A stretch of 50,258 bases of DNA from IMG/VR virus record IMGVR_UViG_3300033153_010050, positions 1 through 50,258 of that record; one strand, given 5' to 3'. The translations under genes and the position numbers were made by a program. Within the stretch, counting starts at the first letter, position 1. Every line of letters begins with the position of its first letter. Shown piece by piece: positions 10,425 to 47,871 of the stretch. The notes below the pieces were generated by a model. The model was given only the letters and a program-made list of their open reading frames with translations. It ran no database searches and was not told the DNA's origin. Source of the stretch: a virus.

Positions 10425-11596
<1,172 letters not shown>

Positions 11597-17211: not shown

Positions 17212-17775
17212 CTACAGGTGTTTGAGCGCGAGCATGAGCGGCTCAGGATGGTCCCAGGTGAACCTGGCGAAGTCCGCGCCCTCCTTCTCGTTGTACGGTT
17301 GCGCGTAGAGGAGTGCTGCCCCGTAAGGGTTAGCGGTCAACCAGTCCTTGACCTTGTCGGGGCGGTCGTCAACGAAGACATCGCCCTGGACCAACTCCTT
17401 ACGATGGATGGGGATGACGTGCTTGTAATCCGCACCGAAGTGCATGGCGAGCCAGGTACGGCGCTCATGCTCCCAGGTCTCACAGTCGATCCAGGGGGAG
17501 GTGACGTAGAACACCTCGTGAGCAGCGTCCTCGATGGCCCTGATGCCCTCTTGGGCGCCAGGGATGACCGGCAGGGTGGCCCAGAACGTCGGCCCAGACA
17601 GCATGATCTTGAGGAGCTCCTCCTGCTCCTCGTCCAGAAGAGCCATGATGTCATATCCCTTTGTCAGCTCCTCCAGCTTGGGGGATGGGCGGCTGAGCAC
17701 CAGCTCGATCTCATCGAACGCATGATTCGCCCACCGGTTGAGGGTGCTATCTACGTCGCAGAGCAACCTCGCCAT
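17212..17775 (-). CDS. 5'(3')-deoxyribonucleotidase, NT5C type
   Basis: A 187-residue HAD-superfamily phosphatase resembling the cytosolic NT5C/5'-nucleotidase type C family, which dephosphorylates deoxyribonucleoside monophosphates. It shows the nucleophile motif LCDVDSTLN (D7, D9), VTSPW as motif II and GDVFVDDRPDKV as motif IV. In phages it may degrade particular dNMPs to reshape the pool. The ATG overlaps the stop of the ParB-like gene (TGATG). Confidence 0.8.
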   Translation of the reverse strand: MARLLCDVDSTLNRWANHAFDEIELVLSRPSPKLEELTKGYDIMALLDEEQEELLKIMLSGPTFWATLPVIPGAQEGIRAIEDAAHEVFYVTSPWIDCETWEHERRTWLAMHFGADYKHVIPIHRKELVQGDVFVDDRPDKVKDWLTANPYGAALLYAQPYNEKEGADFARFTWDHPEPLMLALKHL

Positions 17776-24286: not shown

Positions 24287-25048
24287 CTAATCGTGATCTG
24301 ACTCGTTCTCGGTCACGACTTGTACAAAAGCTTCTTCGATCGGGACGGTTGTGACAGGCCTTCCTCCAACCGTAGGCGGCCGAATCTGCTGAGGCTGCTC
24401 CCGATAGGGACTGACCTCATTCACCGAAAGATTCATCACCATGCTCTTCCACAACTCTGCAGGCTTCTTTATACGCCACTGGGGTTGCCAATAGAAGGGG
24501 ACGGTGACCACGACGGAGACGATTTCATTCTCTGCTTTGGCGCCCGTAAACGCCGTTGCGCCTGACACTGCAGAGATAGAGTGGTTTGGCGCCAGGTGAT
24601 GAATGTTCCCCGCCCGGTGGATTTGTCTGCGAAAGACGTTGGTGTAGAACGACGTGTTCCACGCAAGACGCTGCGCGTCGAGGTCCTCTTTTGCCTGGCA
24701 ATGATAGGCGATCGTCATGGACATGAGGTCTGTGTGTGTACGTTGTGCGTCCCACGACCGCAGGTGCTGCAGCTGGTCCAGCCCGAGGTTGCCCCACCGG
24801 CCAGCACCAAGGATGCAGGTGACGTGAGGAAGAACCTCCACCTCTGTGAGCATAGGCTTCTCGGCGGAGATAACCAGCTCGGTGGTACTCACATCGGGGT
24901 CCCACCGTAGACCGTGCCCAGAAGGGAAGGTGCGGAAGAGATTCTGCAGGAAGTACGTGAAGAGCTTCTGCAGGAAGTAGAACGGGTCGTGGGCAAGCGT
25001 TCCGTCCTGCGGATTGAACTCTGGAATTTTAACAGCAGGCCTAGTCAC
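24287..25048 (-). CDS. Putative neck/tail-completion protein
   Basis: A 253-residue protein of unassigned virion role. The N-terminal FNPQDGTLAHDPFYFLQKLF helix leads to a strand-rich body (LTEVEVLPHVTCILGAGR; NEIVSVVVTVPFYWQPQW). Its position immediately upstream of the sheath suits a tail terminator or neck protein. The start is GTG 25048, overlapping the upstream gene by 8 bases, with GGGAG 10 bases before. Confidence 0.5.
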   Translation of the reverse strand: MTRPAVKIPEFNPQDGTLAHDPFYFLQKLFTYFLQNLFRTFPSGHGLRWDPDVSTTELVISAEKPMLTEVEVLPHVTCILGAGRWGNLGLDQLQHLRSWDAQRTHTDLMSMTIAYHCQAKEDLDAQRLAWNTSFYTNVFRRQIHRAGNIHHLAPNHSISAVSGATAFTGAKAENEIVSVVVTVPFYWQPQWRIKKPAELWKSMVMNLSVNEVSPYREQPQQIRPPTVGGRPVTTVPIEEAFVQVVTENESDHD

Positions 25049-25373
25049 TTTCGAGCTGCTCCCTTCTCCTCATACCTTGAGCCAGTGCCAGAGCACTGCC
25101 GGCAGTCAGGAGGCCAGAAGCTGTACCGATGGCCAGCCGCTGGGTGGGAGACAGCGAGGGGAGAAGGCGAGGTAGTATCGCACGACGTGCGGCCGCGGAC
25201 GTAGCTGAGCCGAGACCGTAGGCCCCAGCACCAAGCACCAGGTTCTTGAGCGCCCGATTGACGTTCGTTTCTGACAAGTTCTTACGCTGCTGCTTGGCAG
25301 CCTTGATGAGCGTGAACTCGTCAGCGAACCCCTCTCGGGTAGCCCTACCGTATTTGACCGCGGTCATTTCCAT
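25041..25373 (-). CDS. Small hydrophobic virion-region protein
   Basis: A 110-residue protein. An N-terminal GFADEFTLIKAAK (about residues 15-27) resembles the DEL-type peptide seen on other proteins of this region. Two hydrophobic Gly/Ala segments follow (LVLGAGAYGLGSATSAAA; TASGLLTAGSALALAQGM) that could insert in a membrane. The start is at the first ATG, inside the upstream gene, without a clear ribosome site; an in-frame ATG two codons later begins MTAVK. Confidence 0.5.
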   Translation of the reverse strand: MEMTAVKYGRATREGFADEFTLIKAAKQQRKNLSETNVNRALKNLVLGAGAYGLGSATSAAARRAILPRLLPSLSPTQRLAIGTASGLLTAGSALALAQGMRRREQLESD

Positions 25374-26211
25374 AGTTCAGGCTCATCGGTCGTGTAAACT
25401 CTCGACTATTCTTTAGATTCTCCAACACTGAGAGGTCGATGGGAATCTTGTACCGTACATCCGACTTTGGGATCTGGTGTAGGACCGGCTCCTGGTGCAC
25501 TACAGCACGGAGCTTTTGGGTGGAAGGAACTCTCTCCACCTGCCATCGAATGTTCTCTATCTCTATGATGACGTCCCGGGGAGAGACAGGTGGGTAGCCA
25601 CTTGTCCTCGCGCTTGTATCCACCGGTTGCCGTTCCGAGATGCTAATGGGCTGCGGAGATACCGGCGAAGGGTCGATCTGGATGTAGAAGATGATCGGCG
25701 TACCGTAGCCAGTCACGAACCCGGTGTCGAAGCAGGTGACACAGTTGCCTCTCCGCTTCTTGCCAAGACTGTTCCCTGCATTGTTCATGTCCCAACAGTG
25801 AGGGCATCGCTGACCGAAGGTAAGCCGTGGAAGGAGTATCGCTGGGCGACCGTTAAACTCCCTCTGGGCCATCCCCATCCGCCGACGGATCTCCATGTTG
25901 ATGAGGTCCGGAGGTGCGGCCAGCCACGCGGGACCAAACTCCCTCTCGTCCCCTGTGTCCTTGTGGACCGCACGAATCTTGTAGAAGTACTGCCGCCACT
26001 TGTGGAACGCCCGAATGTCTGGGTCGCGGAAGAGGAAGGTGTATCCAAACGGCCCAGCGTGGACCTGGAATGGTCCTTCTGAACCATCCACGCTCCGCAG
26101 CAAGAAGAAGCTGTAGCGTTCGAGGTCCTCGTTGGTGTCGCGGACCTTCCAGGAGATGTCGAGGTGGTCTAGGTCGTAAGCCGTAACCGTGATGTCGAAG
26201 ACCTCAATCAC
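25345..26211 (-). CDS. Virion protein with FN3-like and zinc-binding segments
   Basis: A 288-residue protein. The N-terminal 95 residues look like a fibronectin-type domain (AYDLDHLDISWKVRD; YFYKIRAVH). A central CPHCWDMNNAG and NCVTCFDTGF form a four-cysteine zinc site; the C-terminal part is strand-rich (DVIIEIENIRWQVERVPS). It is likely a neck or connector component by position. GTG 26211 shares a base with the upstream TAG, with GGAAGG before it. Confidence 0.55.
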   Translation of the reverse strand: MIEVFDITVTAYDLDHLDISWKVRDTNEDLERYSFFLLRSVDGSEGPFQVHAGPFGYTFLFRDPDIRAFHKWRQYFYKIRAVHKDTGDEREFGPAWLAAPPDLINMEIRRRMGMAQREFNGRPAILLPRLTFGQRCPHCWDMNNAGNSLGKKRRGNCVTCFDTGFVTGYGTPIIFYIQIDPSPVSPQPISISERQPVDTSARTSGYPPVSPRDVIIEIENIRWQVERVPSTQKLRAVVHQEPVLHQIPKSDVRYKIPIDLSVLENLKNSREFTRPMSLNYGNDRGQIR

Positions 26212-27476
26212 TACCTTCCACCTCGAGCCCAAGACACGCCCATCTGCCAGCCCTTCTGGAAGATGTTCTTGTTGCCCGCGCCTCGGACGACCTCCTGGGC
26301 GATGTCAGCTCGGCCCGCCTGGAACGCCTGGTTGAGTGCCCCGGACTGCCGGAACTTCTCCCCCATCTGAGCTGCGGCACCCTCGGAGATGGCGCCAATA
26401 GCACCACCAAGGGTGCCACCGGCCACACCACCGATGATTGCGCTGCGTGCCAAACCCTTGCTGCTCGAGTCCTCAGAGGTCAGAGCTCCGATCCCCGCAC
26501 CCAGCACTGTGCCAGCAGCAAGACCGGTCAATGTCCGCGCATGTGCCTCCTTGGCCAAGATGCGCCCGATCTGGTCACCCGCAGTGACGAGGTCTTGAGC
26601 ATGGGACTCCTTGATAGGGTCCTCCCTGAGCCGGTCCTTGATGTACTTCAGGCCGCTGCGGTCCTGCTTGCCCTTCCCCGGGCCCAGGCCCCGACCCCCG
26701 CCACGCTTGGCACCCATGCCAGGCCGCGGACCCATTCGCATCCTGCCGCCGCCCGGGCAGCCCTCCGCCGCAGTCTTCGCGTCTTGTTTGACAGGCGCCG
26801 GCCGCGTGCGCTTCAGCAGACTGAGGAACTCGCTCATGGTGTGCCCTTGAGGCGCTACGGTCTGATCTTCCTTCTTCTTTCGACTCATGTACAAGGCTAT
26901 GCCGCCAGCCTGCCCCATCGAACCCTTCTTGCTGAGCTCATGGGCCATGTCGTAGGCCACAGCCTCCGCTTTGTGGGTGTTGACCCCCATCTTCTCAGCG
27001 AGGGCGTGGAAGTCCTCGTCCTTGGCGTTGTCGTGTCGTGACAGCCACTCTCGGATCGAGACCTTGTCCTGCTTGGTTGGCGCCCGACCACCCTCGTCCG
27101 CGGAGGCCTTCTTCACGAGCTCTACAGCTGCGCCGCACTTGGGACACTTGCCGTTCTTGAGCTCGGACCCCTTGCCTCGCCAGCCGCAGGGCGGGCAGTG
27201 GTAGGTGTCATCGGCACCGGCCTTCTTCTCTTTCTCAGCCTTCGCCTCCATCTTGTGGAGCCTGGAGTAGTAGTCCGGGAACTCCTCGAGGTGGTCACGA
27301 CTGATCTCCCGCGCCATCTTGGGGTCAGTGGTGTGCTCCATCTCGACCTGCTGGCCCATGGCCATCTGCTTGGGCGAGAAGTCATCGTCCAGCTTCTTGT
27401 CCGCCTTGCCGCCAGGGATAGCGTCCTTGGCATCCTCAGCCAACTTGCGGAGCTCCTGCAGATACTCTTCGAACAT
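26211..27476 (-). CDS. Multi-segment virion protein with DUF5661-like region
   Basis: A 421-residue protein. The N-terminus (MFEEYLQELRKLAEDA) fits the recurrent DEL-type peptide. A DUF5661-like segment follows (VEMEHTTDPKMAREISRDHL; FPDYYSRLHKMEA, about 44-77), then a CPPC/CPKC zinc ribbon (about 94-114). A helical segment (HALAEKMGVNTHKAEAVAYD) precedes a basic Gly/Arg/Met-rich linker and a Gly/Ala hydrophobic region with glycine-zipper character (about 315-370). It may be an ejected or internal protein; its function is unknown. Confidence 0.6.
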   Translation of the reverse strand: MFEEYLQELRKLAEDAKDAIPGGKADKKLDDDFSPKQMAMGQQVEMEHTTDPKMAREISRDHLEEFPDYYSRLHKMEAKAEKEKKAGADDTYHCPPCGWRGKGSELKNGKCPKCGAAVELVKKASADEGGRAPTKQDKVSIREWLSRHDNAKDEDFHALAEKMGVNTHKAEAVAYDMAHELSKKGSMGQAGGIALYMSRKKKEDQTVAPQGHTMSEFLSLLKRTRPAPVKQDAKTAAEGCPGGGRMRMGPRPGMGAKRGGGRGLGPGKGKQDRSGLKYIKDRLREDPIKESHAQDLVTAGDQIGRILAKEAHARTLTGLAAGTVLGAGIGALTSEDSSSKGLARSAIIGGVAGGTLGGAIGAISEGAAAQMGEKFRQSGALNQAFQAGRADIAQEVVRGAGNKNIFQKGWQMGVSWARGGR

Positions 27477-27478
27477 GA

Positions 27479-28465
27479 CTAGTACCTCGGCTGCTGCCCC
27501 TGAGTGGGCTTGAACGTCTGGTAAGCCGCCACGGGGGCAGACAGCACCCCCGCACCAATAGCCGCGTTGAGGAGCTGCTTCTTCCGCTCGGGGGACACCA
27601 ATGGCGCGTCAGGGGCTGCGGCGCCGGCGTCAGTGGTCGCGGGGGCTGCCGCGCTACCTGCGGTCTCAACCGGTACATCAGCTGAGGGCTTCTTCGGCGC
27701 GGGGGCCTGCTTCTGCGGCGCGGGCGTACGAGACGCCTGCTGCCCCAGCTGTTGCCGCCCCATCTGCTGGGCTTGGGAAGGAGCTGGAGGCAGAGGAACC
27801 GAGGCTGCCGGCTGCGTGGCGAGCTGAGGCTGACCGGTCGGCCCGGCCTGGACAGGTGCGGGCGCACCAGCCGGGGCTGGCTTGGGAGCACCAGTGGGGG
27901 CCGCCTTGGGACTCCCGATGGTGGTCTGGGGACCCTTGAGCTTGGTCGGGTCGACCCCACCCGTCTCGGCTTTCATGAGCTTCTTGCCACGGCTGTAGCT
28001 TCCGCCACCGGTCGCTTGGACCTGCCTGGTCTGCTTGACAGACGCCTTGAACGCTTTGCCCATGCCACCTGTCCCGGGGGACGGTGCGACGGACCGGAAC
28101 CGGGCGGGCTTGACGGCCCTACCCAGTCCCTTGACGCCGGCCTTGGCCGCCGCCCCAAGCCCGCGGAGCAGTGCGATCCCCGCGCGCTTCTCCATGTCGT
28201 CCGCCCACTCGAGGTAGTAGCGGAAGAGGGGCATCTGGTTGGCCACCTTCTCCAGACGACCCATGGAGTTGGCGATCTGGTACGCGAGCTCCCAGGGGTC
28301 CTTCCCCTGCATCTGGGCCACCTTGATGAACTTGCTGGTGAGAAACTCCTCCTCAGCCGCCTCCTTGGTGAGACCCTGGTAGTACTCGAGGCCTGCTACC
28401 TTCGTCATCTCCTGCTCGTAGCGGAAGGCGTCAAAGGCTTGAATGAGAATGTCGCGGTCTGCCAT
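27479..28465 (-). CDS. Pro/Ala/Gln-rich virion-region protein
   Basis: A 328-residue protein with a helical N-terminal 95 residues (including FRYEQEMTKVAGLEYYQGL) and a basic Gly-rich region. About 120 residues of low-complexity Pro/Ala/Gln/Thr sequence follow, and then a short hydrophobic C-terminal segment (AAIGAGVLSAPVAAY). This looks like an extended internal or ejection-type protein rather than an enzyme. GGAG lies 6 bases before the ATG. Confidence 0.55.
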   Translation of the reverse strand: MADRDILIQAFDAFRYEQEMTKVAGLEYYQGLTKEAAEEEFLTSKFIKVAQMQGKDPWELAYQIANSMGRLEKVANQMPLFRYYLEWADDMEKRAGIALLRGLGAAAKAGVKGLGRAVKPARFRSVAPSPGTGGMGKAFKASVKQTRQVQATGGGSYSRGKKLMKAETGGVDPTKLKGPQTTIGSPKAAPTGAPKPAPAGAPAPVQAGPTGQPQLATQPAASVPLPPAPSQAQQMGRQQLGQQASRTPAPQKQAPAPKKPSADVPVETAGSAAAPATTDAGAAAPDAPLVSPERKKQLLNAAIGAGVLSAPVAAYQTFKPTQGQQPRY

Positions 28466-28468
28466 GGG

Positions 28469-28855
28469 TTACTCCGCCCAGCCTGAGGTTAGCCCCTTCC
28501 ACATAGCACCCTGGCGGCCCCCAATCGTGTTGTAGGAGCTCTGTCGAACCTTGTCCATCTCCTGGGGCGCGAACCGGTTACCGTAGCTCTCAGCCTTGCG
28601 GACACCCTTGCCGTAGCTCTTGGACGCGGCCCGGCCAATCTGGCTCAGACCACCCTTGCCCTTCGAGCCGCCAAGGACGTGCGACAGGCCTTGCTGCCAC
28701 CCACCCTTCTTGGCCCCCTTGCGGTACAACCCGGCCAGAGTCTTGCCACCAGCCCCCAGGGCCTTGGCCGCCCCGTAGAGATACTGGATGCCGGCCTCCT
28801 TCTCGATGGAGGACAGCTCATCTGCAAAGGCTCTCATCTCAGCTGGCGTCATCAT
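28469..28855 (-). CDS. Small basic Gly/Lys-rich virion-region protein
   Basis: A 128-residue protein starting with a clear DEL-type peptide (AFADELSSIEKEAG, residues 9-22), then a basic, Gly-, Lys- and Ser-rich body without recognisable domains. Its composition resembles small internal head proteins that contact DNA. ATG overlaps the stop of the upstream gene. Confidence 0.55.
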   Translation of the reverse strand: MMTPAEMRAFADELSSIEKEAGIQYLYGAAKALGAGGKTLAGLYRKGAKKGGWQQGLSHVLGGSKGKGGLSQIGRAASKSYGKGVRKAESYGNRFAPQEMDKVRQSSYNTIGGRQGAMWKGLTSGWAE

Positions 28856-30739: not shown

Positions 30740-31867
30740 CTAGTACTGCTCAACCTGCGGGAAGTGGAGGTTGGCGTCGACGCGGTTGTTCTCCGCTCCG
30801 AGGTCTTCCTCCTCGACCGGGATGCGGGCCTCGAAGCCCGTGTCGGTCTGGGTCGGCCGCACCGAGCCGCGGTACAGCTCGAGCTTCCGGCTGCCGGCGA
30901 TGTTGATGGTGGACATGCCGATGTCCTCCCAGCTCCACCAGACGATCCGGTTGCCGATCTTGTCGATGTAGAACTTCGTGTTGTTCAGGATGTAGAACTT
31001 CCCGTAGAACTCGGGAGCCGCGAACACGTACACGTTACCGCGCCGCAGGATGTCGGACTTGATGGTACGGACCACCTTGCGCCCGAGCAGGGTGTTGTAC
31101 TTGTAGCCGTCCACCACGGTCTCGGACTGGATGCGGTCACCCATGTCCTCGACGGTCCAGTTCAGGATGTCGTTGTGGTCGGCCTCGGTGATCAGGATGC
31201 GCTCCGAGCGCAGCCGGTTGTCATCGAGCAGGTTGAAGAGCTTCACCAGGTCGGGGCGCTGGACGGGGCGGACCAGGAAGTCCACGCCGTCAGCGGCCAG
31301 GGCCAGCTCGCCCTTCGCGACCGAGATCTCCTGCGCGTTGGCGTCCAGCGCGCGCACGTTGGTGGCGTTGAACGCCACGGTCGTGGTGGCGTTGGTCTCG
31401 GTCTGCAGCGCCTGGATGCCAGCCTCGTTGTGGCGGAGACCCTCGCGGTCCTCGATCTCCTGGATGTCCTTCACCGTGTTGTCTTCGATGACCTTGGTGA
31501 TGGGCATCTCGTAGGCGAGCAGCTCCTGCTCGGTCTTCTCGAACTTCTCGGACATGATGGTGAAGAAGGGGACCTCGGCGCGAGGCGCACGGATGAACCG
31601 CGCGGTGCCTTGGCCGCGGAAGTCGACAGCCAGAGCCTTGCTCTGGGGCTCGACGTCCACGATCTTCACCAGGGTGTCGTGGTTGACGGAACGCTGGCAG
31701 TCCGCACGGGTCACGTTCTCCGGCGGCACGATGTGACGCCAGAAGGACTGCTCGCGCAGCCGGTCGCGGATGAAGACCCCGCCGTACTCGGCCAGCTTGT
31801 CTTTGCCATCGGGGGAATCGAGGCGCGTGTTGAACGCTTCGATGACCGCCTGAACCTTGCTACTCAT
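30740..31867 (-). CDS. Major capsid protein, HK97 type
   Basis: A 375-residue head protein judged to be the major capsid subunit. Its size suits an HK97-fold capsid protein. An N-terminal helical region (KVQAVIEAFNTRLDSPDGK) is followed by strand-rich domains (TLVKIVDVEPQSKALAVDFR), a long helix region and a C-terminal part with FYILNNTKFYIDKIGNRIVW and ELYRGSVRP. Position supports it: scaffold candidates and a small decoration-like gene lie just upstream. GGAG is 6 bases before ATG 31867. A strong hairpin follows the stop. Confidence 0.75.
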   Translation of the reverse strand: MSSKVQAVIEAFNTRLDSPDGKDKLAEYGGVFIRDRLREQSFWRHIVPPENVTRADCQRSVNHDTLVKIVDVEPQSKALAVDFRGQGTARFIRAPRAEVPFFTIMSEKFEKTEQELLAYEMPITKVIEDNTVKDIQEIEDREGLRHNEAGIQALQTETNATTTVAFNATNVRALDANAQEISVAKGELALAADGVDFLVRPVQRPDLVKLFNLLDDNRLRSERILITEADHNDILNWTVEDMGDRIQSETVVDGYKYNTLLGRKVVRTIKSDILRRGNVYVFAAPEFYGKFYILNNTKFYIDKIGNRIVWWSWEDIGMSTINIAGSRKLELYRGSVRPTQTDTGFEARIPVEEEDLGAENNRVDANLHFPQVEQY

Positions 31868-31911
31868 CACGATCTCCTTTGATCAGGTCATCAGCTCATC
31901 CACCAGGCGGT

Positions 31912-34317: not shown

Positions 34318-34581
34318 TTAGGTTCTCACCGGCGGCGGAGGTACTGCCTTAGACGCCGAAGCTGCCCCGTACGCCGCCGCTGGCTCTGTGCTGTGAACCA
34401 CAGAGTAGTTGGTGGGCTTTTTATCAATCTTCATGGTCGACTTGATTTTAGCCCCAGTGGACTGGGCTGCAGGCTTCATCCCCGAGATGATGTTCTTCGA
34501 GGCCGACGCGCCTGCGGTAAACACATTCGCGCCGATCTTGACGAGCTCGTCTAGGAATGAAGCCCACATCACCCGGTCCAT
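34318..34581 (-). CDS. Small protein with DEL-type N-terminal peptide
   Basis: An 87-residue protein that begins VMWASFLDELVKIGA (residues 4-18), one of the clearest examples of the recurrent DEL-type peptide. The rest is Ala/Lys/Ser-rich with low complexity. It looks like a small internal head protein. GGAGGAG is 9 bases before ATG. Confidence 0.6.
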   Translation of the reverse strand: MDRVMWASFLDELVKIGANVFTAGASASKNIISGMKPAAQSTGAKIKSTMKIDKKPTNYSVVHSTEPAAAYGAASASKAVPPPPVRT

Positions 34582-35573: not shown

Positions 35574-38117
35574 TCACCCTCTGGGAGTCACACCTCCCTT
35601 CAACAATTCTCTTAGCGCAGCTGCGGTGCCAAGGGAAGAAACGTAGGGATGATTTGCCAAGAAACGCTCCACGTCACCTAGCCGCTTCCCCTTCTGGGCC
35701 TCCCCCCGCAAGTGTGCTGAGTACATCAGAGTGGCAGGAAAAGCGCTCAACGGCGCCCACACCTTGGCCGAGATAGCCTCCTTCGAGAAGACATCCCCCG
35801 TATCAACGCCCATGACCTCAGCTTGCAGCTGGGGGTTGGTCGCCATGATTGCTTCGGCGTCGGCTGCCACCTTCAACATCTCCCTCCGGTACCAATTATA
35901 GGCGGCACCGATCTTCGACAGAAGCGGAGAATTCTCTTCACTCGGAGAAGAGCCCAACCGAGGCTTGATGTGAATGACGATGATGCGCTTGCGGACGACA
36001 GGGCCGAAGTAGGACTTGTCCTTCAACATCGGCATGAGCTTCTGCATCAGACCGTGCCGCATATGGTGACGGCCAAGGCCCTCACAAGGAGCTTCCTCTT
36101 CGCCATCCCGAGGCGGCCCGAAAGTAACTCCGCGCTCATCCAGGTCGTCAGCCATCTCAGACTTGCCGGCGTGAGAGAGCATCATGCGTTGGAACTCTCG
36201 GGGTTTGAGTACCATCCCCATGCCAGACATAGTGGACAGCGAGTCGCGTAGATCCCCACGCCCCATCTCGTTGAGCATCTCGTGAGGGCACTCAGGCTCA
36301 CGGTCAGACAAGTCATCAATGACCCGGCCAGCGTTTCCCTTGGGGTAGATGCGCTTGAGAATCTCCGCCCACTTCTTCTGCTCGGCACTCTTGAGCGCAC
36401 TGACCTTGGTGTTACCCCAGATCTCCTCGTCCTTGAGCCCCGGGGCCTCTACGCTGGCGGTCTTCTCCATGTTGCGGAAGCTGGTGCCCAGACCTGACCC
36501 GGTGTGGTTGGTCTCCTCACCGGTAACCTTGTTTCTCCAGGTGCGCTGACGGCGCCGGGCGAACGAAGCGGTGTTGAAGAGGTCCTCGAGCTTGAGTTCC
36601 TCCGCGACCTTCGTGAGCTCGTTGGCCACCTTCTCTCCCTTCACCTCTCGGTAGATGGAGGTCTTGAACTGATCGAAGGGCATGATGGTCATGCTGCGGA
36701 AGAAGTCAGCCCTATCGTAGTGCTCGAGGTAGGCCTCCTTCGCCGCATCGGGCGACTCGAAGCCTAGCATCACCTTGTCCTCGTCGTACTTCCCAGCCTT
36801 CGGGTGGTTCCCAGGGTGATTCTGGTGGACGATGTAGACCTCATCCACGTTGGGCTCGGGCCCCACGTAGACATCCAGCTTGTCGAGGTCGACACCCTTC
36901 GTGCCTACGATCTCACCGTAGTGGTGGAGCATCTTGGTGCTCCACTTCTTGCCGCCAGGGCCAGTACCCTCACGAGTCTCACCACGCTTGTTCTCGACAT
37001 GGATCCGGATGCCCTTGTAGTCGATGGTGCCAGTGAACGGGTACTCTTTGCGGTTGGGCTTCGGCGGTGGGCCGACCTCGATGTTGTGCTTGTTCGCCTT
37101 GTAGTCCAGCATGTCGCCGTTGGCCTTCTTCTCCTTCGACTCCTTCGACTCCTTTTGCCCGCGGTCAATCTTGTCCCGCTGCTTCTGCTTGGCCACCATG
37201 ATGGCGATGTCGTCAGTCCACGGGAGTACAGGCCTCACCGTCTTGAAAACACCCCGCGCCACGTCTTTGGCTGCCTCGGGACTCATCGCTGCTTTCACCA
37301 ACCCGTCACTGCGGTTGATACCGTAGAGCTCCTCGGCGTCGAGCACCGAGACAGGAATGTGGCCGAAGCCTTCCGATGCCAGCTTGGCCATCATCTTGGA
37401 CGTCTTGTCCGCACCGATGTAGACGAAGCTGATGTCGAAGAATCGCGGGTGGGGGTTGTCGACGCCGACGATGCGGCCGTCGGGGAGGATGGTGCCCATC
37501 CCCAAACCCTTCACGCATCCGCAGTAGTCCGCCCGAGTCTTCGACTTGTGCCCGCAGATGAGACACACGTCGTACGGCACCCGGCAGCCCATGCTGCAGT
37601 CCGGATAGTCGCCAGCGTCGATGCGGTCGATGACGTGGGCTCCACCGAACTCGTAGGCCTTGGCTCGGTTGACCAGGGCGACCAGCTCCACCCGGCGCAT
37701 GCGGCGATTGAGCGCGACCGCAGGCACGGTACCAAACGCACGACCCTTGTCCTTGTTGCGGTGGTGGGCAAAAGGGTGAGCCTGGAGGAAGGTCCGGTAT
37801 CCGTAGGGCGGAATGATCTTCTTGGCGAAGTCGTCGTATTCGTGGGGCACGCCCGGGTGATTGCGGCAATCATGGGTCAGCGGAGCCCAACGAAAATGGT
37901 CGCCATTGCTGTTCTGCCCCCAGTACTCACTGGCACCGAGGGCACTGATCAGGACCGGCACGTTCTCTTTGTCGGACTTGTACGTGGAAAGCCAGTCCTG
38001 GATCTCTGGCATCATGTGGCCGGCGTACTTGGAGATGGAACCACCTTGAGGGAACGGCCGGACGAGGGGCTCCCCAGAGTCTGAGACTCCACTAAAAGTG
38101 GCGAGTTTGGTGATCAC
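35574..38117 (-). CDS. Prohead-protease-like / pyrophosphatase-like fusion protein
   Basis: An 847-residue protein. Residues 50-235 resemble phage prohead maturation proteases: a His-rich segment (QAHPFAHHRNKDKG; H118/H119 candidate) and CSMGCRVPYDVC with S175 as candidate nucleophile, plus two CxxC-type pairs. Residues 360-490 match the inorganic-pyrophosphatase-like (InPase) domain of phage polyvalent proteins: HHYGEIVGTKGVDLDKLDVY, VYIVHQN, KVMLGFESPDAAKEAY. The last 300 residues are helical and unassigned. It starts at GTG 38117, overlapping the upstream stop. It lies between terminase and capsid genes, as expected for a maturation protease. Confidence 0.65.
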   Translation of the reverse strand: MITKLATFSGVSDSGEPLVRPFPQGGSISKYAGHMMPEIQDWLSTYKSDKENVPVLISALGASEYWGQNSNGDHFRWAPLTHDCRNHPGVPHEYDDFAKKIIPPYGYRTFLQAHPFAHHRNKDKGRAFGTVPAVALNRRMRRVELVALVNRAKAYEFGGAHVIDRIDAGDYPDCSMGCRVPYDVCLICGHKSKTRADYCGCVKGLGMGTILPDGRIVGVDNPHPRFFDISFVYIGADKTSKMMAKLASEGFGHIPVSVLDAEELYGINRSDGLVKAAMSPEAAKDVARGVFKTVRPVLPWTDDIAIMVAKQKQRDKIDRGQKESKESKEKKANGDMLDYKANKHNIEVGPPPKPNRKEYPFTGTIDYKGIRIHVENKRGETREGTGPGGKKWSTKMLHHYGEIVGTKGVDLDKLDVYVGPEPNVDEVYIVHQNHPGNHPKAGKYDEDKVMLGFESPDAAKEAYLEHYDRADFFRSMTIMPFDQFKTSIYREVKGEKVANELTKVAEELKLEDLFNTASFARRRQRTWRNKVTGEETNHTGSGLGTSFRNMEKTASVEAPGLKDEEIWGNTKVSALKSAEQKKWAEILKRIYPKGNAGRVIDDLSDREPECPHEMLNEMGRGDLRDSLSTMSGMGMVLKPREFQRMMLSHAGKSEMADDLDERGVTFGPPRDGEEEAPCEGLGRHHMRHGLMQKLMPMLKDKSYFGPVVRKRIIVIHIKPRLGSSPSEENSPLLSKIGAAYNWYRREMLKVAADAEAIMATNPQLQAEVMGVDTGDVFSKEAISAKVWAPLSAFPATLMYSAHLRGEAQKGKRLGDVERFLANHPYVSSLGTAAALRELLKGGVTPRG
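37154..37166. repeat. Copy of recurrent 13-mer TTTGCCCGCGGTC (coding)
   Basis: The third exact copy of the word found in two intergenic spacers (2549-2561, 13778-13790). Here it lies inside the protease-like gene, coding for part of KIDRGQK. Confidence 0.5.
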
Positions 38118-40068: not shown

Positions 40069-40398
40069 ATGGGAATGATACATGAAGAGGAAGAGCTCTT
40101 CACCACAGATGAGGCGGCCAAGCTCCTGCAGGTCCACCCATCGACTGTACGAAAGCTGGCTAAAGAGGGGGTGCTCGTACGCCGAAGGGCATACAGACAC
40201 CATTTGTTCGTCACTGCAGACAGCGTCAGGGCCTTCGAGGAGGCTCGCCACCTCAGCCTCAACGACCTCTCCACTCGTTTGCTACTCCTGGAACGGAAGG
40301 TCGACAGGTTCATTGTCATGAAGACCGTAACTCAAGACGACGAGATGCTATCACAGATCTCCGGGGTCTTTGAGAAGAACCACCCGCACTCAGGCTAG
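40069..40398 (+). CDS. Excisionase-like helix-turn-helix protein
   Basis: A 109-residue DNA-binding protein. LFTTDEAAKLLQVHPSTVRK, then LAKEGVLVRRRAYRHHLF, is a standard HTH-17/excisionase-type domain (about residues 10-52), followed by a helical tail that may dimerise. It is rightward within a leftward cluster and converges with the terminase gene (4-base overlap). The first ATG is used, but ATG codons at 40075 and 40081 are possible. The likely role is transcription control at the head gene cluster. Confidence 0.8.
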   Translation: MGMIHEEEELFTTDEAAKLLQVHPSTVRKLAKEGVLVRRRAYRHHLFVTADSVRAFEEARHLSLNDLSTRLLLLERKVDRFIVMKTVTQDDEMLSQISGVFEKNHPHSG

Positions 40399-42143
40399 TA
40401 GAGGACCTCGTCGTCCTCGGAGTCGTAGTCGTCGTCATCCAGGTCTTGGTCGACGTCCTTAAACGGCAGCAGAATGTCAGGCCGTGGGTACTTCGCGAAG
40501 GACCCCAAGAGGCAGAACATCGCAGAGTGGGCGGTGTCGTCGGGCTGTTTTGGTGCGTGCTTGAAGACGTTCATCTTCAGCTTCTCGTTGTACTCACTGA
40601 AGATATTGAGGAAGTCAGCTGCGAAAGGATCGTTGAACTCATCCCACCGTGGGAATCGGATCAAGCTGCCCTTCTTGATGGCGTTGAAGATGTCGGACAT
40701 GATCTCGGTGCGGTGGCAGAGGAACCTGAGGAGCTTGGGGTCCCACCTCAGCTTGTCCCGAACATTCCCCACCCACTGGAACTTCCGGATGCGTTGCACA
40801 CCGAAGGCCCGCATCAGCTTGTCGTTCGGCCAATGACCTCCACCATAGTCGACGCCGACAGTGTGAACCTTGAACCGTTTGATGAGGTGTTTGATGACCC
40901 TCAGCTGCACTTCTGGTTCAGACTCCATCCCTGAGAACCGCTTGAAGTAGAAAAAGGTGAACTTGTCCATGTCCCAGGGCATGTACCCACCAAGGGACAC
41001 CACTGTGTAGCTGCCCTCCCCGGTACCCCAGTCAATGCCCATGAAGACCGACGTCGTGGACAGGTACCGGTTGGCCACTTCCAGGTAGTGGTCCATGGAC
41101 AATTCTTCATTGGCGCATTTCTGCATCTGGGCGCGGGTGAGGGGGCGGGTGCCGGAGTCGTAGCTGCGGCCAAGAACCTCGTTGTAGAACTTGGCGCGTG
41201 AGTAGCTCCGCTGCTTGTGAAGGATGTCGTCCCATTCGATCCAGGGCACCATCAGCTGTGGGATACGGTAACCCTCAAAGGGCTTCTCCACTTTCGGCTT
41301 TGGATTCATCGACGCCCAGCACGCGTCGGGGTCTGCTGGGTTGATGATGTTGCCGCACTTGTCGCAGATGAGCCCATCCGTGCCGATGTTGTCCTCTTCC
41401 AGAATGTTCCAATGCCATGAAGATGGGTCCTTCGGTGTCCCGTGGTGGCGGCATGGTACGGCCCATTCATTCTGCGTAGAGAACTGGGACCAGTAGTACT
41501 CAAGTGTCCCGTCCAGCGACTTGGGCGTCCCTAGATAGTTGAAGAGCTTCCACTCACTGTGTGACGCACACTCCTCGATGACCGGCACATTATCTTGGAT
41601 GATGTCCTGGAACTCGTCGATGTTGATGAGGTCGGCCGGGATACCGCGAACACGGTCAGCGTTCAAGAACACGAAGCGCAATGTGACCTGGCTGCGGTTG
41701 ATGAACTTCTTCTCGAGGATGTTTGAGAGCAGCTTGGAGTTAGTGAACTGGCTCAGGATTTCCGAAGTCTCGATGGGCTCTTTGATGCGGTCGCGGCTGA
41801 AGACCTTCGTCTGCATATGTGAAGGGGAGACGTACAGAGCTCGGAACCCAGAAGTGAGGGAGCAGTAGGACAAGATCATGTTGCCGAGCAGCGTACTCTT
41901 CTCGACCTGACGGCCGGCAACGATGAGCTTCCTCTTCGCAGGCGAGTCGTAGATGGTGCGTAGGTACCGGCGGCCATCGAACGAGAAGTTCCGCAGCTTG
42001 CCCCCGGAGGGCATCATCATGCCGAACTCAGTGAACTGTGAGGGGGTGGTCGGGTACTCGCTCGTGTCAACTTGAGCTATCGACCCGAACTCTTCCTCTT
42101 CAACAGACTCACCGTACCAGTTGTAGTCCTCAGCGATCGCCAT
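40395..42143 (-). CDS. Terminase large subunit
   Basis: The DNA-packaging motor ATPase and nuclease, 582 residues. The Walker A variant is AGRQVEKSTLL (76-86), Walker B and catalytic acid LINIDEFQD (172-180). Nuclease-domain aspartates lie in MGIDWGTGEG (D371) and VGVDYGGGHW (D442), and a conserved-type DTAHSAMFCLL lies near the end. A CxxC zinc-type insert (CDKCGNII, about 260) sits between ATPase and nuclease domains, as in some GpA-like terminases. The tail is very acidic. GGAG is 7 bases before ATG. No small subunit was recognised. Confidence 0.9.
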   Translation of the reverse strand: MAIAEDYNWYGESVEEEEFGSIAQVDTSEYPTTPSQFTEFGMMMPSGGKLRNFSFDGRRYLRTIYDSPAKRKLIVAGRQVEKSTLLGNMILSYCSLTSGFRALYVSPSHMQTKVFSRDRIKEPIETSEILSQFTNSKLLSNILEKKFINRSQVTLRFVFLNADRVRGIPADLINIDEFQDIIQDNVPVIEECASHSEWKLFNYLGTPKSLDGTLEYYWSQFSTQNEWAVPCRHHGTPKDPSSWHWNILEEDNIGTDGLICDKCGNIINPADPDACWASMNPKPKVEKPFEGYRIPQLMVPWIEWDDILHKQRSYSRAKFYNEVLGRSYDSGTRPLTRAQMQKCANEELSMDHYLEVANRYLSTTSVFMGIDWGTGEGSYTVVSLGGYMPWDMDKFTFFYFKRFSGMESEPEVQLRVIKHLIKRFKVHTVGVDYGGGHWPNDKLMRAFGVQRIRKFQWVGNVRDKLRWDPKLLRFLCHRTEIMSDIFNAIKKGSLIRFPRWDEFNDPFAADFLNIFSEYNEKLKMNVFKHAPKQPDDTAHSAMFCLLGSFAKYPRPDILLPFKDVDQDLDDDDYDSEDDEVLY

Positions 42144-43623: not shown

Positions 43624-43658
43624 AAAGCAAAGGGTCATTATGACCCCGCGCTTTTCTT
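43624..43658. terminator. Bidirectional terminator between convergent genes
   Basis: Nested inverted repeats: AAAGC/GCTTT (43624-43628 and 43650-43654) around GGGTCA-TTA-TGACCC (43632-43646). TTTTCTT follows on the + strand, and A-rich sequence on the other side gives U residues leftward. It separates the rightward 101-residue gene from the leftward 768-residue gene, whose stop overlaps it. Confidence 0.8.
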
Positions 43659-45963
43659 AGCCTTTGTCGAATCCGTGGATCTGAGACTTGCGGTACGCTG
43701 CGGCCGCGCGGCCAATCTGCTCTCCCACATACTTGGTGTTCCGCGCAACATGACCCAAGGTCTCGTCTGCTCTGGTGGGGGTGAACGTCTCCATGAACTG
43801 TTTGTACTGCTTACGCGCTTCTCTCTTGTTCATGCCGTGTGCCCCCTGCAGCGTTGCCATGAGGTCCTTCCTCACCGCCTTGCCGTACCCCTTTTGTCGT
43901 TTGACAGCCAGCTGGTCGATGGGGTTCTTCGTACTGAGAGAGTCGATGCGACGCTTGGATTGAAGGTGCTCGACGAGAGAAGGGATCGAACCGCCAAAGC
44001 CGTCAGGGAAGAAGTTCCCAACAGCGCGCACCACTGACTCCCCCTTGGCTACGGGCTTCTCCATGTGCGCGGAGATGTCGGCCAGTGTGTGGGAACCCTG
44101 ACCGATGTCGAGCAGCCCTCCCACGGCGTCTCGGGCGGTACCCTTCCCGGCCATAGCCGCTGCCACAGCCGCCACACCACGCCCCTTGACCTTCTCCACT
44201 TCCTTGAAGGCGTCCGTTTTCCTCATGTTCGGGAAGGCGTGAACTGGATCGTTGACCATGAACCAAGGCCCACGAATTCCGTAGTCTGAGTCGTGCGACC
44301 CTTTGACAACCAAACGCTTCACCTCGGTGGAGACTCCCTTTCCCATCTCCTTGACCGCGTTGCCGGTAAGCCGCTTGTGGTTGCTGTCGTGGTAAGCCGT
44401 CTTCTCGTACTCTGGCCGAGCACGCATGATCTTCCGCACGGCCTGGTCAGAGGGGTTCCCGAATCGCTGTTGAGCCCGCCGAGACCTCCGCAGAAGTGTG
44501 GAGTGGCGTTTAACCGCAGTACCCACTGCCTCTGGGATGTTCTCCAGCCCAATGGCGGTGGGGTTTCCCACGGTCCGGCCTCCGAACTCCGCCGTACCCT
44601 TTGTCAGTTTGCCCTGGAGGTCAGTCATCTCAGGATCGGGGGCGTAGTAGACCGCGGGCTTTCCCGACGCCTGAGTCTCCGCAAAGGTAGTGCCGTGGGA
44701 GCGAATGACGTTGATGTCTGCCTCTTGCATCATCGAGGGCAGTGGGGCGAAACCATGCGCCACCAACCGGGAGTCCTTCTTGGACATTCGCTGCAGCTTC
44801 TTGAGGATGCCCGGGTTCTTCCCCGCCACTGCATGGATTCGAGCATTCGACGGCAGGTCCGACCGTAGAACGCGCTCCACCATCTCAGGGACCTCAGCCC
44901 CCATGCCGCCACCACTGACCGTGAGGTTGAAGGTCTTTCGGTCCATCAGCCCGCTGCGCTTCTGCTTACGTGTGACCTTCGGGTGAACTGGGAGACCAGT
45001 GAGCGTCTCCTTGTGGCGCGCGCCCAGGGACTTGAGCACCTCCCGAGTACCGACGTGGATACGCTTCCCCTTCACAGACGGATAGTCGTAGTCCATCGGC
45101 CAGTTCACAGGGTCGGTATGCAACACGTGGACGGGGTGGTCTGCCTGGATGAACGGGGCCTGAAGGGTAGTGTTGGTGAGGACGATAGCCTTGTCCTTGT
45201 TGGCCTCAACGTACTTCTTGATCCTCTCCTGATTGGGGCCAAAGATGTGGGACTTCAGGTAGGCTTTCCCCACACCAGTGAACGAGTCATTCTTGCCCTG
45301 AACGAAATCGCGGTACTTGTTCGAGAACTGACGAACCTCTCCTGGGTTGCCGAACGTAGGCTCGAACTCAACGAGCTCTGCGTCGACGCCGCGCTCTTTC
45401 GCCGCAGCCGCGAGGTTCTTCGCCTGCGACATGTGCCCAGCACCAGTCATGGGACCGGTGTAGATGATCTTCATCCCCGTAGGCTTCGCCGCTGTCTTTG
45501 TTAGCGCCTTGAGCTTGGCGATGTCTGCCTGGTCTTTTGGCCGGTTCATGCGCTGCTTCCAATCAAGGGTCTTCTCTGGAGACCAGTGAGGAACGCCATG
45601 GTAGTCGATAGCTCCTGACCGAGAAGCGAAGTTCTTACCGTCCACCACCCATGGCCCGTGGAACGCCTCAATCTCGCCCATTGGAGTCTGGAACGCCACG
45701 CGACGAGCACCACCCTTCTGGCCAACCTCGGCGTCAGGCAGCTTGGCAAGTTGGTTGAATGCACGTGACGATGAGATATTGATGTCCAAGTCACTTGTGG
45801 CCTTGGCGCCTAACGCCCCCAGAACTCCACTACCCCCTACTTGCACATGGCGTGTGCTCACCCCCGCAGCGTTCAATCTCTGCTTGAGCTCACCGAGAAA
45901 CTTCTCATGTCTTCCAACAGCAGCGAGTTTTGCCTTCTCCAATATGGCCTCGTCATACTGCAT
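43657..45963 (-). CDS. Nucleotidyltransferase–glycosyltransferase–PLC-like fusion
   Basis: A 768-residue protein with three apparent enzyme parts. Residues 1-155 resemble the nucleotidyltransferase fold: GGSGVLGALGAKATSDLDI (G44, S45, D58, D60), GEIEAF as third acidic position, and RPKDQADIAKL. Residues 163-485 resemble a GT-B glycosyltransferase of the MurG/MGDG-synthase kind: KIIYTGPMTGAGHMSQA, then SHGTTFAETQASGKPAVYY as donor-site loop. Residues 520-640 carry a phospholipase C or S1/P1-like zinc pattern: HDS (525), GSHDSDYGIRGPW, H575, and GSHTLADISAH (H625, D629, H633). AGGAAGG precedes the ATG. Activities are predicted, not proven. Confidence 0.65.
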   Translation of the reverse strand: MQYDEAILEKAKLAAVGRHEKFLGELKQRLNAAGVSTRHVQVGGSGVLGALGAKATSDLDINISSSRAFNQLAKLPDAEVGQKGGARRVAFQTPMGEIEAFHGPWVVDGKNFASRSGAIDYHGVPHWSPEKTLDWKQRMNRPKDQADIAKLKALTKTAAKPTGMKIIYTGPMTGAGHMSQAKNLAAAAKERGVDAELVEFEPTFGNPGEVRQFSNKYRDFVQGKNDSFTGVGKAYLKSHIFGPNQERIKKYVEANKDKAIVLTNTTLQAPFIQADHPVHVLHTDPVNWPMDYDYPSVKGKRIHVGTREVLKSLGARHKETLTGLPVHPKVTRKQKRSGLMDRKTFNLTVSGGGMGAEVPEMVERVLRSDLPSNARIHAVAGKNPGILKKLQRMSKKDSRLVAHGFAPLPSMMQEADINVIRSHGTTFAETQASGKPAVYYAPDPEMTDLQGKLTKGTAEFGGRTVGNPTAIGLENIPEAVGTAVKRHSTLLRRSRRAQQRFGNPSDQAVRKIMRARPEYEKTAYHDSNHKRLTGNAVKEMGKGVSTEVKRLVVKGSHDSDYGIRGPWFMVNDPVHAFPNMRKTDAFKEVEKVKGRGVAAVAAAMAGKGTARDAVGGLLDIGQGSHTLADISAHMEKPVAKGESVVRAVGNFFPDGFGGSIPSLVEHLQSKRRIDSLSTKNPIDQLAVKRQKGYGKAVRKDLMATLQGAHGMNKREARKQYKQFMETFTPTRADETLGHVARNTKYVGEQIGRAAAAYRKSQIHGFDKG

Positions 45964-46013: not shown

Positions 46014-46118
46014 ATGTCAGCGCTGCAAATCCTCGAAGGTCTGTTCGGGTTCATGTTCATCATGCCCATCTACGCTCTCAGCAAGCTGTTTGAGCTACTG
46101 ACCGGTTCCGCATTCTAG
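46014..46118 (+). CDS. 34-residue membrane peptide
   Basis: A very small rightward gene with a full set of signals: promoter-like TATAAG, AAGGAGG five bases before ATG, and a 34-residue product that is mostly hydrophobic (ILEGLFGFMFIMPIYALSKL). It is probably a single-span membrane peptide. Its stop overlaps the convergent PLC-like gene by 4 bases. Such peptides can be holin-like, regulate host membrane enzymes or block superinfection; none of these can be chosen here. Confidence 0.65.
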   Translation: MSALQILEGLFGFMFIMPIYALSKLFELLTGSAF

Positions 46119-47059
46119 AATACCGCGCGAGCGATTCGTCCGAGCAAGGGCTTGGCCTTGGAAACTTCCCGGGCCACAGCTCTTGGTCGGACGCGTTCAA
46201 CCACTTGCCTTTTAACATGGCCTACGTTGCGTGCGGCACGACCCCGGAGCTGAGAGGCGCGCCCCGGCGCCTGGCCCTTTGCAGCCGTCTCGTACATCTG
46301 AGCAGCCTGCTCAGGGCTGAGACCCTGATTGCGAACCATGCTGTTGATGACGCGGCGCTTGTTCGACGACGCCATACTTTTAGCCTTGTCTAGACTGGCA
46401 GCGTCGGCCTTGTAACGATCCGGCTGCATGAGATCCAGGTTCGGTGACTCGAGGGGGTTTATCCCCGTTATCTTCAGTCCGGACTGCACATGCTCTGCAG
46501 CGGAGATCGGGAACCCGAGGGCTTCCCCGCCGGGCACTTTCTGGGCGACACGCCTCACCTGCTGCGTGACCTTCTCCGCACCTTTCTGGGCCTTCTGGGC
46601 GTAAGCCTGCGCCCTCGACTTTGGCGCAGGTTTCGAAGCCTTCGCGATCTCGAGTGGCTTGTCGGTATGTGCGCCCAGGTCCATATACGAGTGTTGGGCC
46701 TCCCCTAGATTCATGAGGCCCTTCGTTCTTTTTGAACCACTGCCACTGGCGATGCCACTGGCGATATCGTCCACGGCAGACCTACGCCGCTTCGCAATGT
46801 CCCGAAGAGTCTGAAACCGGGTCTGCCCGGGCATGCTGTGGATTCGTGTGTTCATGGGGTTCCAGGGATGGCGGATGCCCGCATCGGCGTCAACTGCACC
46901 GCGGCGAAGAAGAGCACCAGTACCTTTCCCAAGGCCCATTCCTTTTGACGTGATGTCTGCAAGATCGCTATGAACTGCGGGACCGTAAGCCTCCTTCACC
47001 GCTGCGATCTTCTGCAACTCGTCTTGCATGGCGTTGTAGATGATGTCCTTCTCGACCAT
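46115..47059 (-). CDS. PLC/S1-P1-like metal-site protein with DEL peptide
   Basis: A 314-residue protein. It begins IIYNAMQDELQKIAAVKEA (DEL-type peptide, about 6-24). Residues 29-135 align with the C-terminal domain of the 768-residue fusion: VHSD (H30), GAVDADAGIRHPW (D57, D59), RIHSMPG (H74), and AQHSYMDLGAH (H123, D127, H131). The HxxxDxxxH plus upstream His/Asp pattern is of the zinc-dependent phospholipase C/S1-P1 type. The rest is a basic Ala/Lys-rich tail. ATG 47059 follows GGGAG; the open frame beyond it runs antisense-like and is not used. Confidence 0.65.
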   Translation of the reverse strand: MVEKDIIYNAMQDELQKIAAVKEAYGPAVHSDLADITSKGMGLGKGTGALLRRGAVDADAGIRHPWNPMNTRIHSMPGQTRFQTLRDIAKRRRSAVDDIASGIASGSGSKRTKGLMNLGEAQHSYMDLGAHTDKPLEIAKASKPAPKSRAQAYAQKAQKGAEKVTQQVRRVAQKVPGGEALGFPISAAEHVQSGLKITGINPLESPNLDLMQPDRYKADAASLDKAKSMASSNKRRVINSMVRNQGLSPEQAAQMYETAAKGQAPGRASQLRGRAARNVGHVKRQVVERVRPRAVAREVSKAKPLLGRIARAVF

Positions 47060-47211: not shown

Positions 47212-47871
47212 CTACGCAGGGGCAGCGACGGCGCCACGTGGTGGTCGTGGGGGCTGCGTCAACGACGGCACCCAGCTCCGGGACTTGACCATGCGCGGGG
47301 CCACATGCTTCCCGACCCACCTGTCGACGAAGGTGGACCGTGGAGCCTCGGTCTTGGCCTTGTAGCCGAGCGCGTGCTCCATCTGCTGCCCCATGTTGGA
47401 GATGCGACCAGGGTTGACCTGCATCTCAACCGGGGTGCCCTGGTACAGCCCCTTGATGTTCACCCCATGGTAGCCCGGGCGAGCCTTGGCCGAGGAGCTC
47501 AACCCCGTGACACCTTGGTCCTGCAGCGCCTTCATCGCACGCTGCACATCTTCAGGACCCTTCCCGTACATCTGCATGCCGAGGAGGTCGTCGGGCACAT
47601 CGGTGAGGCCCTTCGCCTGAATGGACTGTGGCGTCTTGACCCGGGCACGATGGATCTTCAGCCCCTTCCCCTCGAGGTTGTGGATGAGGTTCTTCCCCGA
47701 CTTCGCAGCCTGCATGCGAGGAGCCTGCATCACACCAGGGTTGGCGACGAGCTTGGTGCCACCAAGTAGCGACCCCTTCAATGCCTTGAATCCGTGACGG
47801 ATCGTCTCCCACTGCGCTTCTTTGATGAGACGCAACTCGTCGCTGAAGGCAAAGTAGGCGACGTTGTTCAT
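47212..47871 (-). CDS. RelA/SpoT-like synthetase-domain protein
   Basis: A 219-residue protein with a RelA/SpoT (ppGpp synthetase) type core. RVKTPQSIQAKG (R77, K79, S83, K87) matches the R.K...S...K motif; DVPDDLLGMQMYG (D95) the DL.G.R motif; RPGYHGVN (131-138) the GY.S.H motif; GTPVEMQV (E149, Q151) the catalytic E-x-Q motif; and MEHALGYK (164-171) the H..GYK end. No hydrolase or regulatory domain is attached. The first 20 residues (VAYFAFSDELRLIKEAQWE) are a DEL-type peptide. It probably makes an alarmone or pyrophosphorylates another substrate. ATGA overlap joins it to the upstream gene. Confidence 0.7.
   Translation of the reverse strand: MNNVAYFAFSDELRLIKEAQWETIRHGFKALKGSLLGGTKLVANPGVMQAPRMQAAKSGKNLIHNLEGKGLKIHRARVKTPQSIQAKGLTDVPDDLLGMQMYGKGPEDVQRAMKALQDQGVTGLSSSAKARPGYHGVNIKGLYQGTPVEMQVNPGRISNMGQQMEHALGYKAKTEAPRSTFVDRWVGKHVAPRMVKSRSWVPSLTQPPRPPRGAVAAPA

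What the first reader, a model, noticed from the sequence alone, without database searches (positions are those of the whole stretch)
47212..47871. RelA/SpoT-like synthetase domain in a virion-gene neighbourhood
All main synthetase motifs can be read in order: R-x-K...S...K, D-L-x-G, G-Y-H-G-V-N, E-x-Q and H-x2-GYK, without hydrolase or regulatory domains. The protein starts with the DEL-type peptide shared by neighbouring virion-region proteins. A packaged alarmone synthetase could halt host growth or translation directly after DNA entry, or pyrophosphorylate nucleotides or tRNA as some small RelA-like toxins do.
Basis: partly seen in the sequence, partly recalled or inferred. Interest (0 to 1): 0.8.

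Follow-up and report, generated by a model that had tools for sequence, protein, structure and literature searches.

The report
Tagged RelA-like enzyme in uncultured phages
An uncultured phage carries a very divergent, stand-alone relative of the enzymes that make the bacterial "stop growing" signal, and its front end bears a short tag shared with many proteins of the same phages' particle-building region, which suggests (not yet shown) that the enzyme is packed into the virus and injected into the host.

Summary
On the minus strand, 47212-47871 encodes a 219-aa protein with all the RelA/SpoT synthetase motifs in order. No profile library recognises it, so the case rests on other evidence. A motif pattern and one follow-up search found three relatives (55-57% identical) in other uncultured phages. 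Motifs R-x-K, S, D-x-x-G, G-Y, E-x-Q, E-H and Y-K are invariant across all four. Profile-profile comparison with 14 RelA/SpoT synthetase domains scores 48, against 13 +/- 2 for shuffles and 10-14 for other nucleotidyltransferases. An AlphaFold model from the four sequences (modest confidence) finds SpoT, FaRel2 and Rel among its first hits. Two departures: the usual H (H323 in E. coli RelA) is N, and the second lysine is K or N.

The tag claim is also supported, and is larger than stated. F-x-D-E-L-x-K-I near the N-terminus recurs across this myovirus lineage (20 genes, about 0-1 expected), including on a SNF2 helicase. In the 156-kb relative the RelA-like protein carries a different tag, the one that phage uses on its other proteins.

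Most likely: a virion-targeted pyrophosphokinase injected to arrest the host. Injected RelA/SpoT domains were already proposed (MuF-Apk2, polyvalent proteins), so this is a new variant. Packaging and product are untested.

The parts
47212..47871 (-). RelA/SpoT-like pyrophosphokinase, 219 aa, starts ATG at 47871
   Evidence: ORF and codon-position G+C; family alignment A2; hhalign; AlphaFold/Foldseek
47824..47847 (-). N-terminal tag F-S-D-E-L-R-L-I (residues 9-16), shared with other virion-region proteins
47611..47643 (-). R77-V-K79-T-P-Q-S83-I-Q-A-K87, pyrophosphate-donor (ATP) site motif
   Evidence: R, K, S invariant in 4 members, K87 is K/N/K/N; lines up with R252/K254/S258/K262 of E. coli RelA
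47572..47589 (-). D95-L-L-G-M-Q, first Mg-binding acidic residue (D275 of E. coli RelA)
47458..47475 (-). G133-Y134-H-G-V-N138, acceptor-base site; N138 replaces the usual H (H323 of E. coli RelA)
47419..47427 (-). E149-M-Q151, second Mg-binding acidic residue (E335 of E. coli RelA)
47359..47379 (-). E165-H166-A-L-G-Y170-K171, C-terminal synthetase motif, same spacing as EHSLNYK of SAS proteins
46115..47059 (-). next gene, start at 47059, tag M-Q-D-E-L-Q-K-I; looks by eye like a zinc-dependent phospholipase C/S1-P1 fold protein
   Evidence: sequence; no Pfam hit
34318..34581 (-). tagged small virion-region protein (FLDELVKI)
28469..28855 (-). tagged virion-region protein (FADELSSI)
27479..28465 (-). 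tagged virion-region protein (YEQEMTKV)
26211..27476 (-). tagged virion-region protein (YLQELRKL)
25041..25373 (-). tagged virion-region protein (FADEFTLI)
40395..42143 (-). terminase large subunit, lineage marker
   Evidence: phrog_675 E=4e-62
30740..31870 (-). major head protein
   Evidence: phrog_2522 E=7e-12
35574..38117 (-). head-region protein with an inorganic-pyrophosphatase-like (InPase) domain
   Evidence: PF18823 E=3e-38; phrog_4660 minor head protein

Best explanation
The gene encodes a compact, very divergent, stand-alone RelA/SpoT-type pyrophosphokinase. It is a late-region cargo protein: its first ~20 residues (AYFAFSDELRLIKEA) are a phage-specific virion-targeting peptide that brings it into the assembling head. 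It then enters the next host with the DNA and moves pyrophosphate from ATP onto the 3'-hydroxyl of a purine nucleotide ((p)ppGpp or (p)ppApp) or of tRNA, damping host transcription, replication and translation while the phage's own RNA polymerase takes over. Shown here: gene, motifs, homology, fold class, relatives, shared and phage-specific tag, virion neighbourhood, and a phage RNA polymerase in two relatives. Inferred: catalytic activity, packaging, injection, acceptor, effect.
For: Synthetase motifs invariant in four divergent members. hhalign to 14 reference RelA/SpoT domains: score 48.2, E 1.7e-6, against shuffles max 21; PcnB, Cca and GlnE score 10-14. AlphaFold from the 4-row alignment: best core blocks at pLDDT ~70-87, pTM 0.52, alpha-beta-alpha-beta-alpha-beta-beta-beta-alpha order. 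First PDB hits include SpoT 7qpr (E 1.1e-3, prob 1.00), FaRel2, RelSeq; VIA best 2be3 GTP pyrophosphokinase Z 7.9, 2.7 A over 106; viral library RelA/SpoT of phage phiN3 and a phage Tas1. Tag: window 6/66 genes against 0.33 by shuffle; strict F-x-D-E-L-x-K-I in 20 of 1231 genes of the lineage against 0.02 by shuffle and ~1 by internal frequency, on unlike proteins such as a SNF2 helicase. In the 156-kb relative the RelA-like protein instead carries F-x-x-G-V-x-x-G-x-x-K, found on 6 of that phage's proteins (shuffle 0.27, max 2) and on none in the other three records. RelA-like gene 56-58% identical while terminase and head protein of the same phages are 31-51% and 29%. beta-beta' RNA polymerase in both larger relatives.
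Against: No Pfam, NCBIfam or PADLOC match, and only a chance-level PHROG hit. Canonical H is N and the second K is not invariant. The fold match is modest and other Pol-beta nucleotidyltransferases score nearly as high. No virion mass spectrometry; the tag could act in scaffold binding or proteolysis rather than cargo loading. The gene is rare: only four members found.
Confidence: 0.55

Rival explanations
1. It is a RelA-like enzyme made during infection and acting inside the same cell (host shut-off, superinfection exclusion or anti-competitor toxin), and is not packaged; the tag reflects something else, such as scaffold contact.
For: toxSAS enzymes act this way in toxin-antitoxin and defence systems (PMC11782079, PMC11559606); nothing shows packaging here.
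Against: The tag is shared with unrelated proteins, and the enzyme wears whichever tag its phage uses, including four tagged genes ~75 kb from the terminase in G002; the gene sits among virion genes in the window and G003; no conserved neighbour that could be an antitoxin in four loci.
Confidence: 0.2
2. It is a structural or assembly protein that keeps a RelA-like fold but has lost catalysis.
For: H to N and K to N changes at two usual active-site positions; location among head and baseplate genes.
Against: Both Mg-binding acidic residues, R-x-K, Y, Q, E-H and Y-K are invariant at ~55% overall identity; accessory distribution: found near only one of 70 terminase loci of the lineage, unlike a structural part.
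Confidence: 0.15
3. It pyrophosphorylates the 3'-CCA end of tRNA like FaRel2, so the arrest is of translation directly (a sub-case of the best explanation that differs in the acceptor).
For: FaRel2 is among the best fold matches; acceptor-site changes (N138, short loop before G133) fit a changed acceptor.
Against: SpoT and RelSeq rank as high or higher; the basic tRNA-binding surface of FaRel2 was not tested.
Confidence: 0.25
4. The motif resemblance is accidental or reflects another Pol-beta nucleotidyltransferase family.
For: No profile library hit; terminal uridylyltransferases and CCA-adding enzymes reach Z 7.0-7.6 in the fold comparison.
Against: hhalign 16 standard deviations above shuffles, with motif-by-motif register, and null-level scores for PcnB, Cca, GlnE.
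Confidence: 0.05

Closest known systems
Apk2 (MuF-fused (p)ppApp synthetases of temperate phages; PMC12226406, PMC11699363)
   Same: RelA/SpoT-type synthetase tied to a phage head component and thought to travel in the virion
   Different: Here no MuF domain but a ~20-residue tag on a stand-alone enzyme; no conserved adjacent immunity gene and no HD hydrolase in the records; no detectable pairwise sequence match in phage or plasmid collections
Phage polyvalent proteins with RelA/SpoT domains (PMC5512222)
   Same: RelA/SpoT domain proposed to be injected with phage DNA; an InPase domain occurs in the same head region here
   Different: Polyvalent proteins are multidomain chains (2-15 domains); this is one 219-aa domain with a tag
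Small alarmone synthetases (RelQ/SAS1, RelP/SAS2) and toxSAS (FaRel2, CapRel)
   Same: Single synthetase domain, same motif order and E-H-x-L-x-Y-K spacing
   Different: Shorter loop before GYHG, N in place of H, K/N variation; no recognisable antitoxin partner
T4 capsid targeting sequence on Alt and internal proteins (PMC9026906, PMC5694885)
   Same: Short N-terminal peptide shared by unlike head-cargo proteins, one of them a host-modifying enzyme
   Different: Different phage lineage; proteolytic removal and head loading not shown here; sequences not compared by tool

Membership tests
RelA/SpoT synthetase superfamily (RSH) | Match to curated profile PF04607 | tested here: not met
   No hit for the window protein or two relatives at loose thresholds; positive control L007 hits at 1e-22
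RelA/SpoT synthetase superfamily (RSH) | Synthetase motifs R-x-K, S, D-x-x-G, G-Y, E-x-Q, E-H...Y-K in order and conserved | tested here: met
   Invariant in four members, register confirmed by hhalign
RelA/SpoT synthetase superfamily (RSH) | His of the GYxSxH acceptor motif and second Lys of R-x-K...K | tested here: not met
   N138 in place of H in all four; K87 is K/N/K/N
RelA/SpoT synthetase superfamily (RSH) | Pol-beta-type synthetase fold closest to RSH enzymes | tested here: inconclusive
   First Foldseek hits are SpoT, with FaRel2 and RelSeq in the top ten, but E about 1e-3 and other Pol-beta folds reach similar Z
RelA/SpoT synthetase superfamily (RSH) | 3'-pyrophosphokinase activity | not testable with these tools
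   needs an enzyme assay
Long RSH (RelA, SpoT, Rel) | HD hydrolase and TGS/ACT domains | tested here: not met
   219 aa; no Pfam hit in the protein; no HD_4 in the four records
MuF-Apk2 phage toxins | N-terminal MuF domain | tested here: not met
   No Pfam match
MuF-Apk2 phage toxins | Adjacent immunity protein or (p)ppApp hydrolase | tested here: not met
   No conserved neighbour in four loci; no HD_4 hit
toxSAS toxin-antitoxin | Adjacent antitoxin gene | tested here: inconclusive
   Neighbours differ between the four loci; an unrecognised small antitoxin cannot be excluded
Capsid targeting sequence (T4-like) | Short N-terminal peptide shared by several virion-region proteins | tested here: met
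Capsid targeting sequence (T4-like) | Peptide directs loading into heads and is cleaved by the prohead protease | not testable with these tools
   needs virion mass spectrometry or a reporter fusion

The most novel reading that the evidence does not exclude
F-x-D-E-L-x-K-I-[AS] and its counterpart F-x-x-G-V-x-x-G-x-x-K are two undescribed virion-loading signals used by a widespread, uncultured myovirus lineage with its own RNA polymerase. Swapping the tag lets different phages load the same enzymes, here an alarmone synthetase, elsewhere a SNF2 helicase and others, for injection at the start of infection.
Probability: 0.4. Interest if true: 0.78.

Novelty: new variant of a known kind. Interest (0 to 1): 0.6.

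Why it matters
If right, phages of this lineage deliver the host's own starvation signal, or a poison built on the same chemistry, in the first moments of infection using a stand-alone enzyme rather than a MuF fusion. The tag would also offer a simple sequence rule for reading the injected protein set of phages that nobody has cultured, and a candidate handle for loading chosen proteins into phage heads.

Tried and rejected
Pfam, PHROG, NCBIfam, PADLOC and PDB sequence searches with the single protein gave nothing usable; the PDB profile search with the family gave none. tblastn in phages and plasmids: no relative. Single-protein and alignment searches of genome contigs: no relative. Single-sequence AlphaFold: pLDDT 41 and meaningless fold hits. 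One motif pattern returned only an unrelated locus (L003); another was mis-spaced and returned only chance hits. Searches for an alarmone hydrolase (HD_4) and MazG in the four records: none. I generated scrambled-background copies of the protein as search bait but did not use them. Rejected: chance motif match; long RSH; MuF toxin; a recognised defence gene.

Full report
What is there. The window is a 50,258-base uncultured virus record. Nearly all genes read on the minus strand. The finding's span encodes, on the minus strand, a 219-aa protein whose start codon overlaps the stop of the upstream gene; the plus strand of the span is closed.

Is it more than chance? No library profile matches the protein, so relatives were needed. 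A DNA pattern built on GYxGxN followed at fixed spacing by E-x-Q found two relatives among viral contigs, and an alignment search found a third. They are 55-57% identical to the window protein, and all four keep R77, K79, S83, D95, G98, G133, Y134, E149, Q151, E165, H166, Y170 and K171 without exception. Against an alignment of 14 RelA/SpoT synthetase domains (E. coli RelA, several small alarmone synthetases found in phage records, and two RelA/SpoT proteins picked up by the same pattern), hhalign gives score 48.2, E 1.7e-6, probability 90; 200 column-shuffled versions give 12.9 +/- 2.2 and at most 21.0. Other nucleotidyltransferases (PcnB, Cca, GlnE, single sequences) score 10-14; single RelA-like sequences score 15-31, so the strength of the match comes from profile against profile. 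By motif order and spacing, R77/K79/S83/D95/Y134/E149/Q151 correspond to R252/K254/S258/D275/Y319/E335/Q337 of E. coli RelA.

Fold. A single-sequence AlphaFold model was useless. With the four-member alignment the best core blocks reach pLDDT of about 70-87, overall 59, pTM 0.52. The first solved structures found include SpoT, FaRel2 and RelSeq, and the structural aligner puts two small alarmone synthetases on top (2be3, Z 7.9, 2.7 A over 106 residues; 6fgk, Z 7.8), tied with uridylyltransferases of the wider Pol-beta superfamily. So the superfamily is likely, and RelA/SpoT is the best match within it chiefly because of the motifs.

Departures. The histidine that ends the acceptor motif is N138 in all members, K87 is K or N, and the loop before GYHG is short. 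The acceptor may therefore differ from GTP/GDP; (p)ppApp or tRNA are open.

Surroundings. The head-tail region holds terminase, major head protein, tail sheath and a head-region protein with an InPase domain. Two of the relatives (G003, 50 kb; G002, 156 kb) share several of these genes at roughly 25-51% identity, while the RelA-like gene is 56-58% identical, so it is the best conserved protein among these phages. In the window and G003 it lies upstream of the terminase region and next to homologous virion-region genes. In G002 it lies about 75 kb from the terminase. G002 and G003 encode a large beta-beta' RNA polymerase; the window record stops before the place where G003 has it. Within 10 kb of 70 terminase loci of the lineage the gene appears only once, in G003 itself, so it is accessory at that site, as cargo would be.

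The tag. Six of 66 window genes, all in the virion half, have F-x-D-E-L-x-x-I-like peptides in their first 40 residues (shuffle mean 0.33, max 3), and the gene at 46115 has one when started at 47059. In the whole lineage the strict form occurs at 20 N-termini of 1231 genes against 0.02 by shuffling and about 1 from internal frequencies; some loci are near-duplicates. The tagged proteins are unlike one another, among them a SNF2-type helicase. In G002 the RelA-like protein carries another peptide, F-x-x-G-V-x-x-G-x-x-K, present on six proteins of that phage (two near the terminase, four in a distant cluster) and on none in the other three records. That the same enzyme wears whichever tag its phage uses is the strongest argument that the tag is a targeting signal tied to the particle. 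T4 provides the model: a 10-19 residue capsid targeting sequence on the internal proteins and Alt (PMC9026906, PMC5694885). Short K-[ILVM]-A motifs are also enriched in the virion half of the window (56 against 27 expected), which could be maturation protease sites; that is a guess.

How it most likely works. Made late, drawn into the head by its tag, injected, then moving pyrophosphate from ATP to an acceptor, stalling host transcription, replication and translation while the phage's own RNA polymerase works. Sequence, fold class, tag and neighbourhood are shown; packaging, injection, activity and acceptor are inferred.

Known context. RelA/SpoT domains fused to MuF were predicted to be phage-delivered toxins (PMC3482391) and shown to make (p)ppApp (PMC12226406); RelA/SpoT domains in injected polyvalent proteins were proposed in 2017 (PMC5512222). 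The idea of a phage-delivered alarmone synthetase is therefore not new. New here are the stand-alone, profile-invisible family, the lineage-specific tags, and the absence of MuF and of any conserved immunity partner.

Noticed in passing
43657-45963 (-): 768-aa protein that seems to join a Pol-beta-type nucleotidyltransferase start (GSG...SDLDI), a glycosyltransferase middle (weak Pfam hits, E 0.003-0.02) and a C-terminal part resembling the neighbouring 46115 protein; reads like a multidomain effector.
   Followed up: partly
L012:32-6085; G002:63520-64464: Large single-chain beta-beta' RNA polymerase in the virion region of two relatives, with a LAGLIDADG match in G003 that suggests an intein.
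   Followed up: partly
8958-11596 (-): MoxR ATPase (bpMoxR, 2e-55) next to a VWA-domain protein, an unusual pair for a phage.
   Followed up: no
window 19000-50258; G003 1-24000: K-[ILVM]-A tripeptides twice to three times as frequent as shuffled expectation in virion-region proteins, not in the window's replication half; possible protease sites.
   Followed up: partly
L050:4604-5131: Tagged small protein (FVDELEKI) whose start YYHGTSPEAEKSILQEGLK looks by eye like an ADP-ribosyltransferase; no Pfam hit.
   Followed up: partly
L011:4730-6235: P-loop kinase-like protein (AAA_18, 4e-7) in the G002 cluster that holds the RelA-like gene and its tagged neighbours; possible further injected enzyme.
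   Followed up: no
17775-18632 (-): ParB-like protein by eye, which could hint at a plasmid-like prophage state.
   Followed up: no
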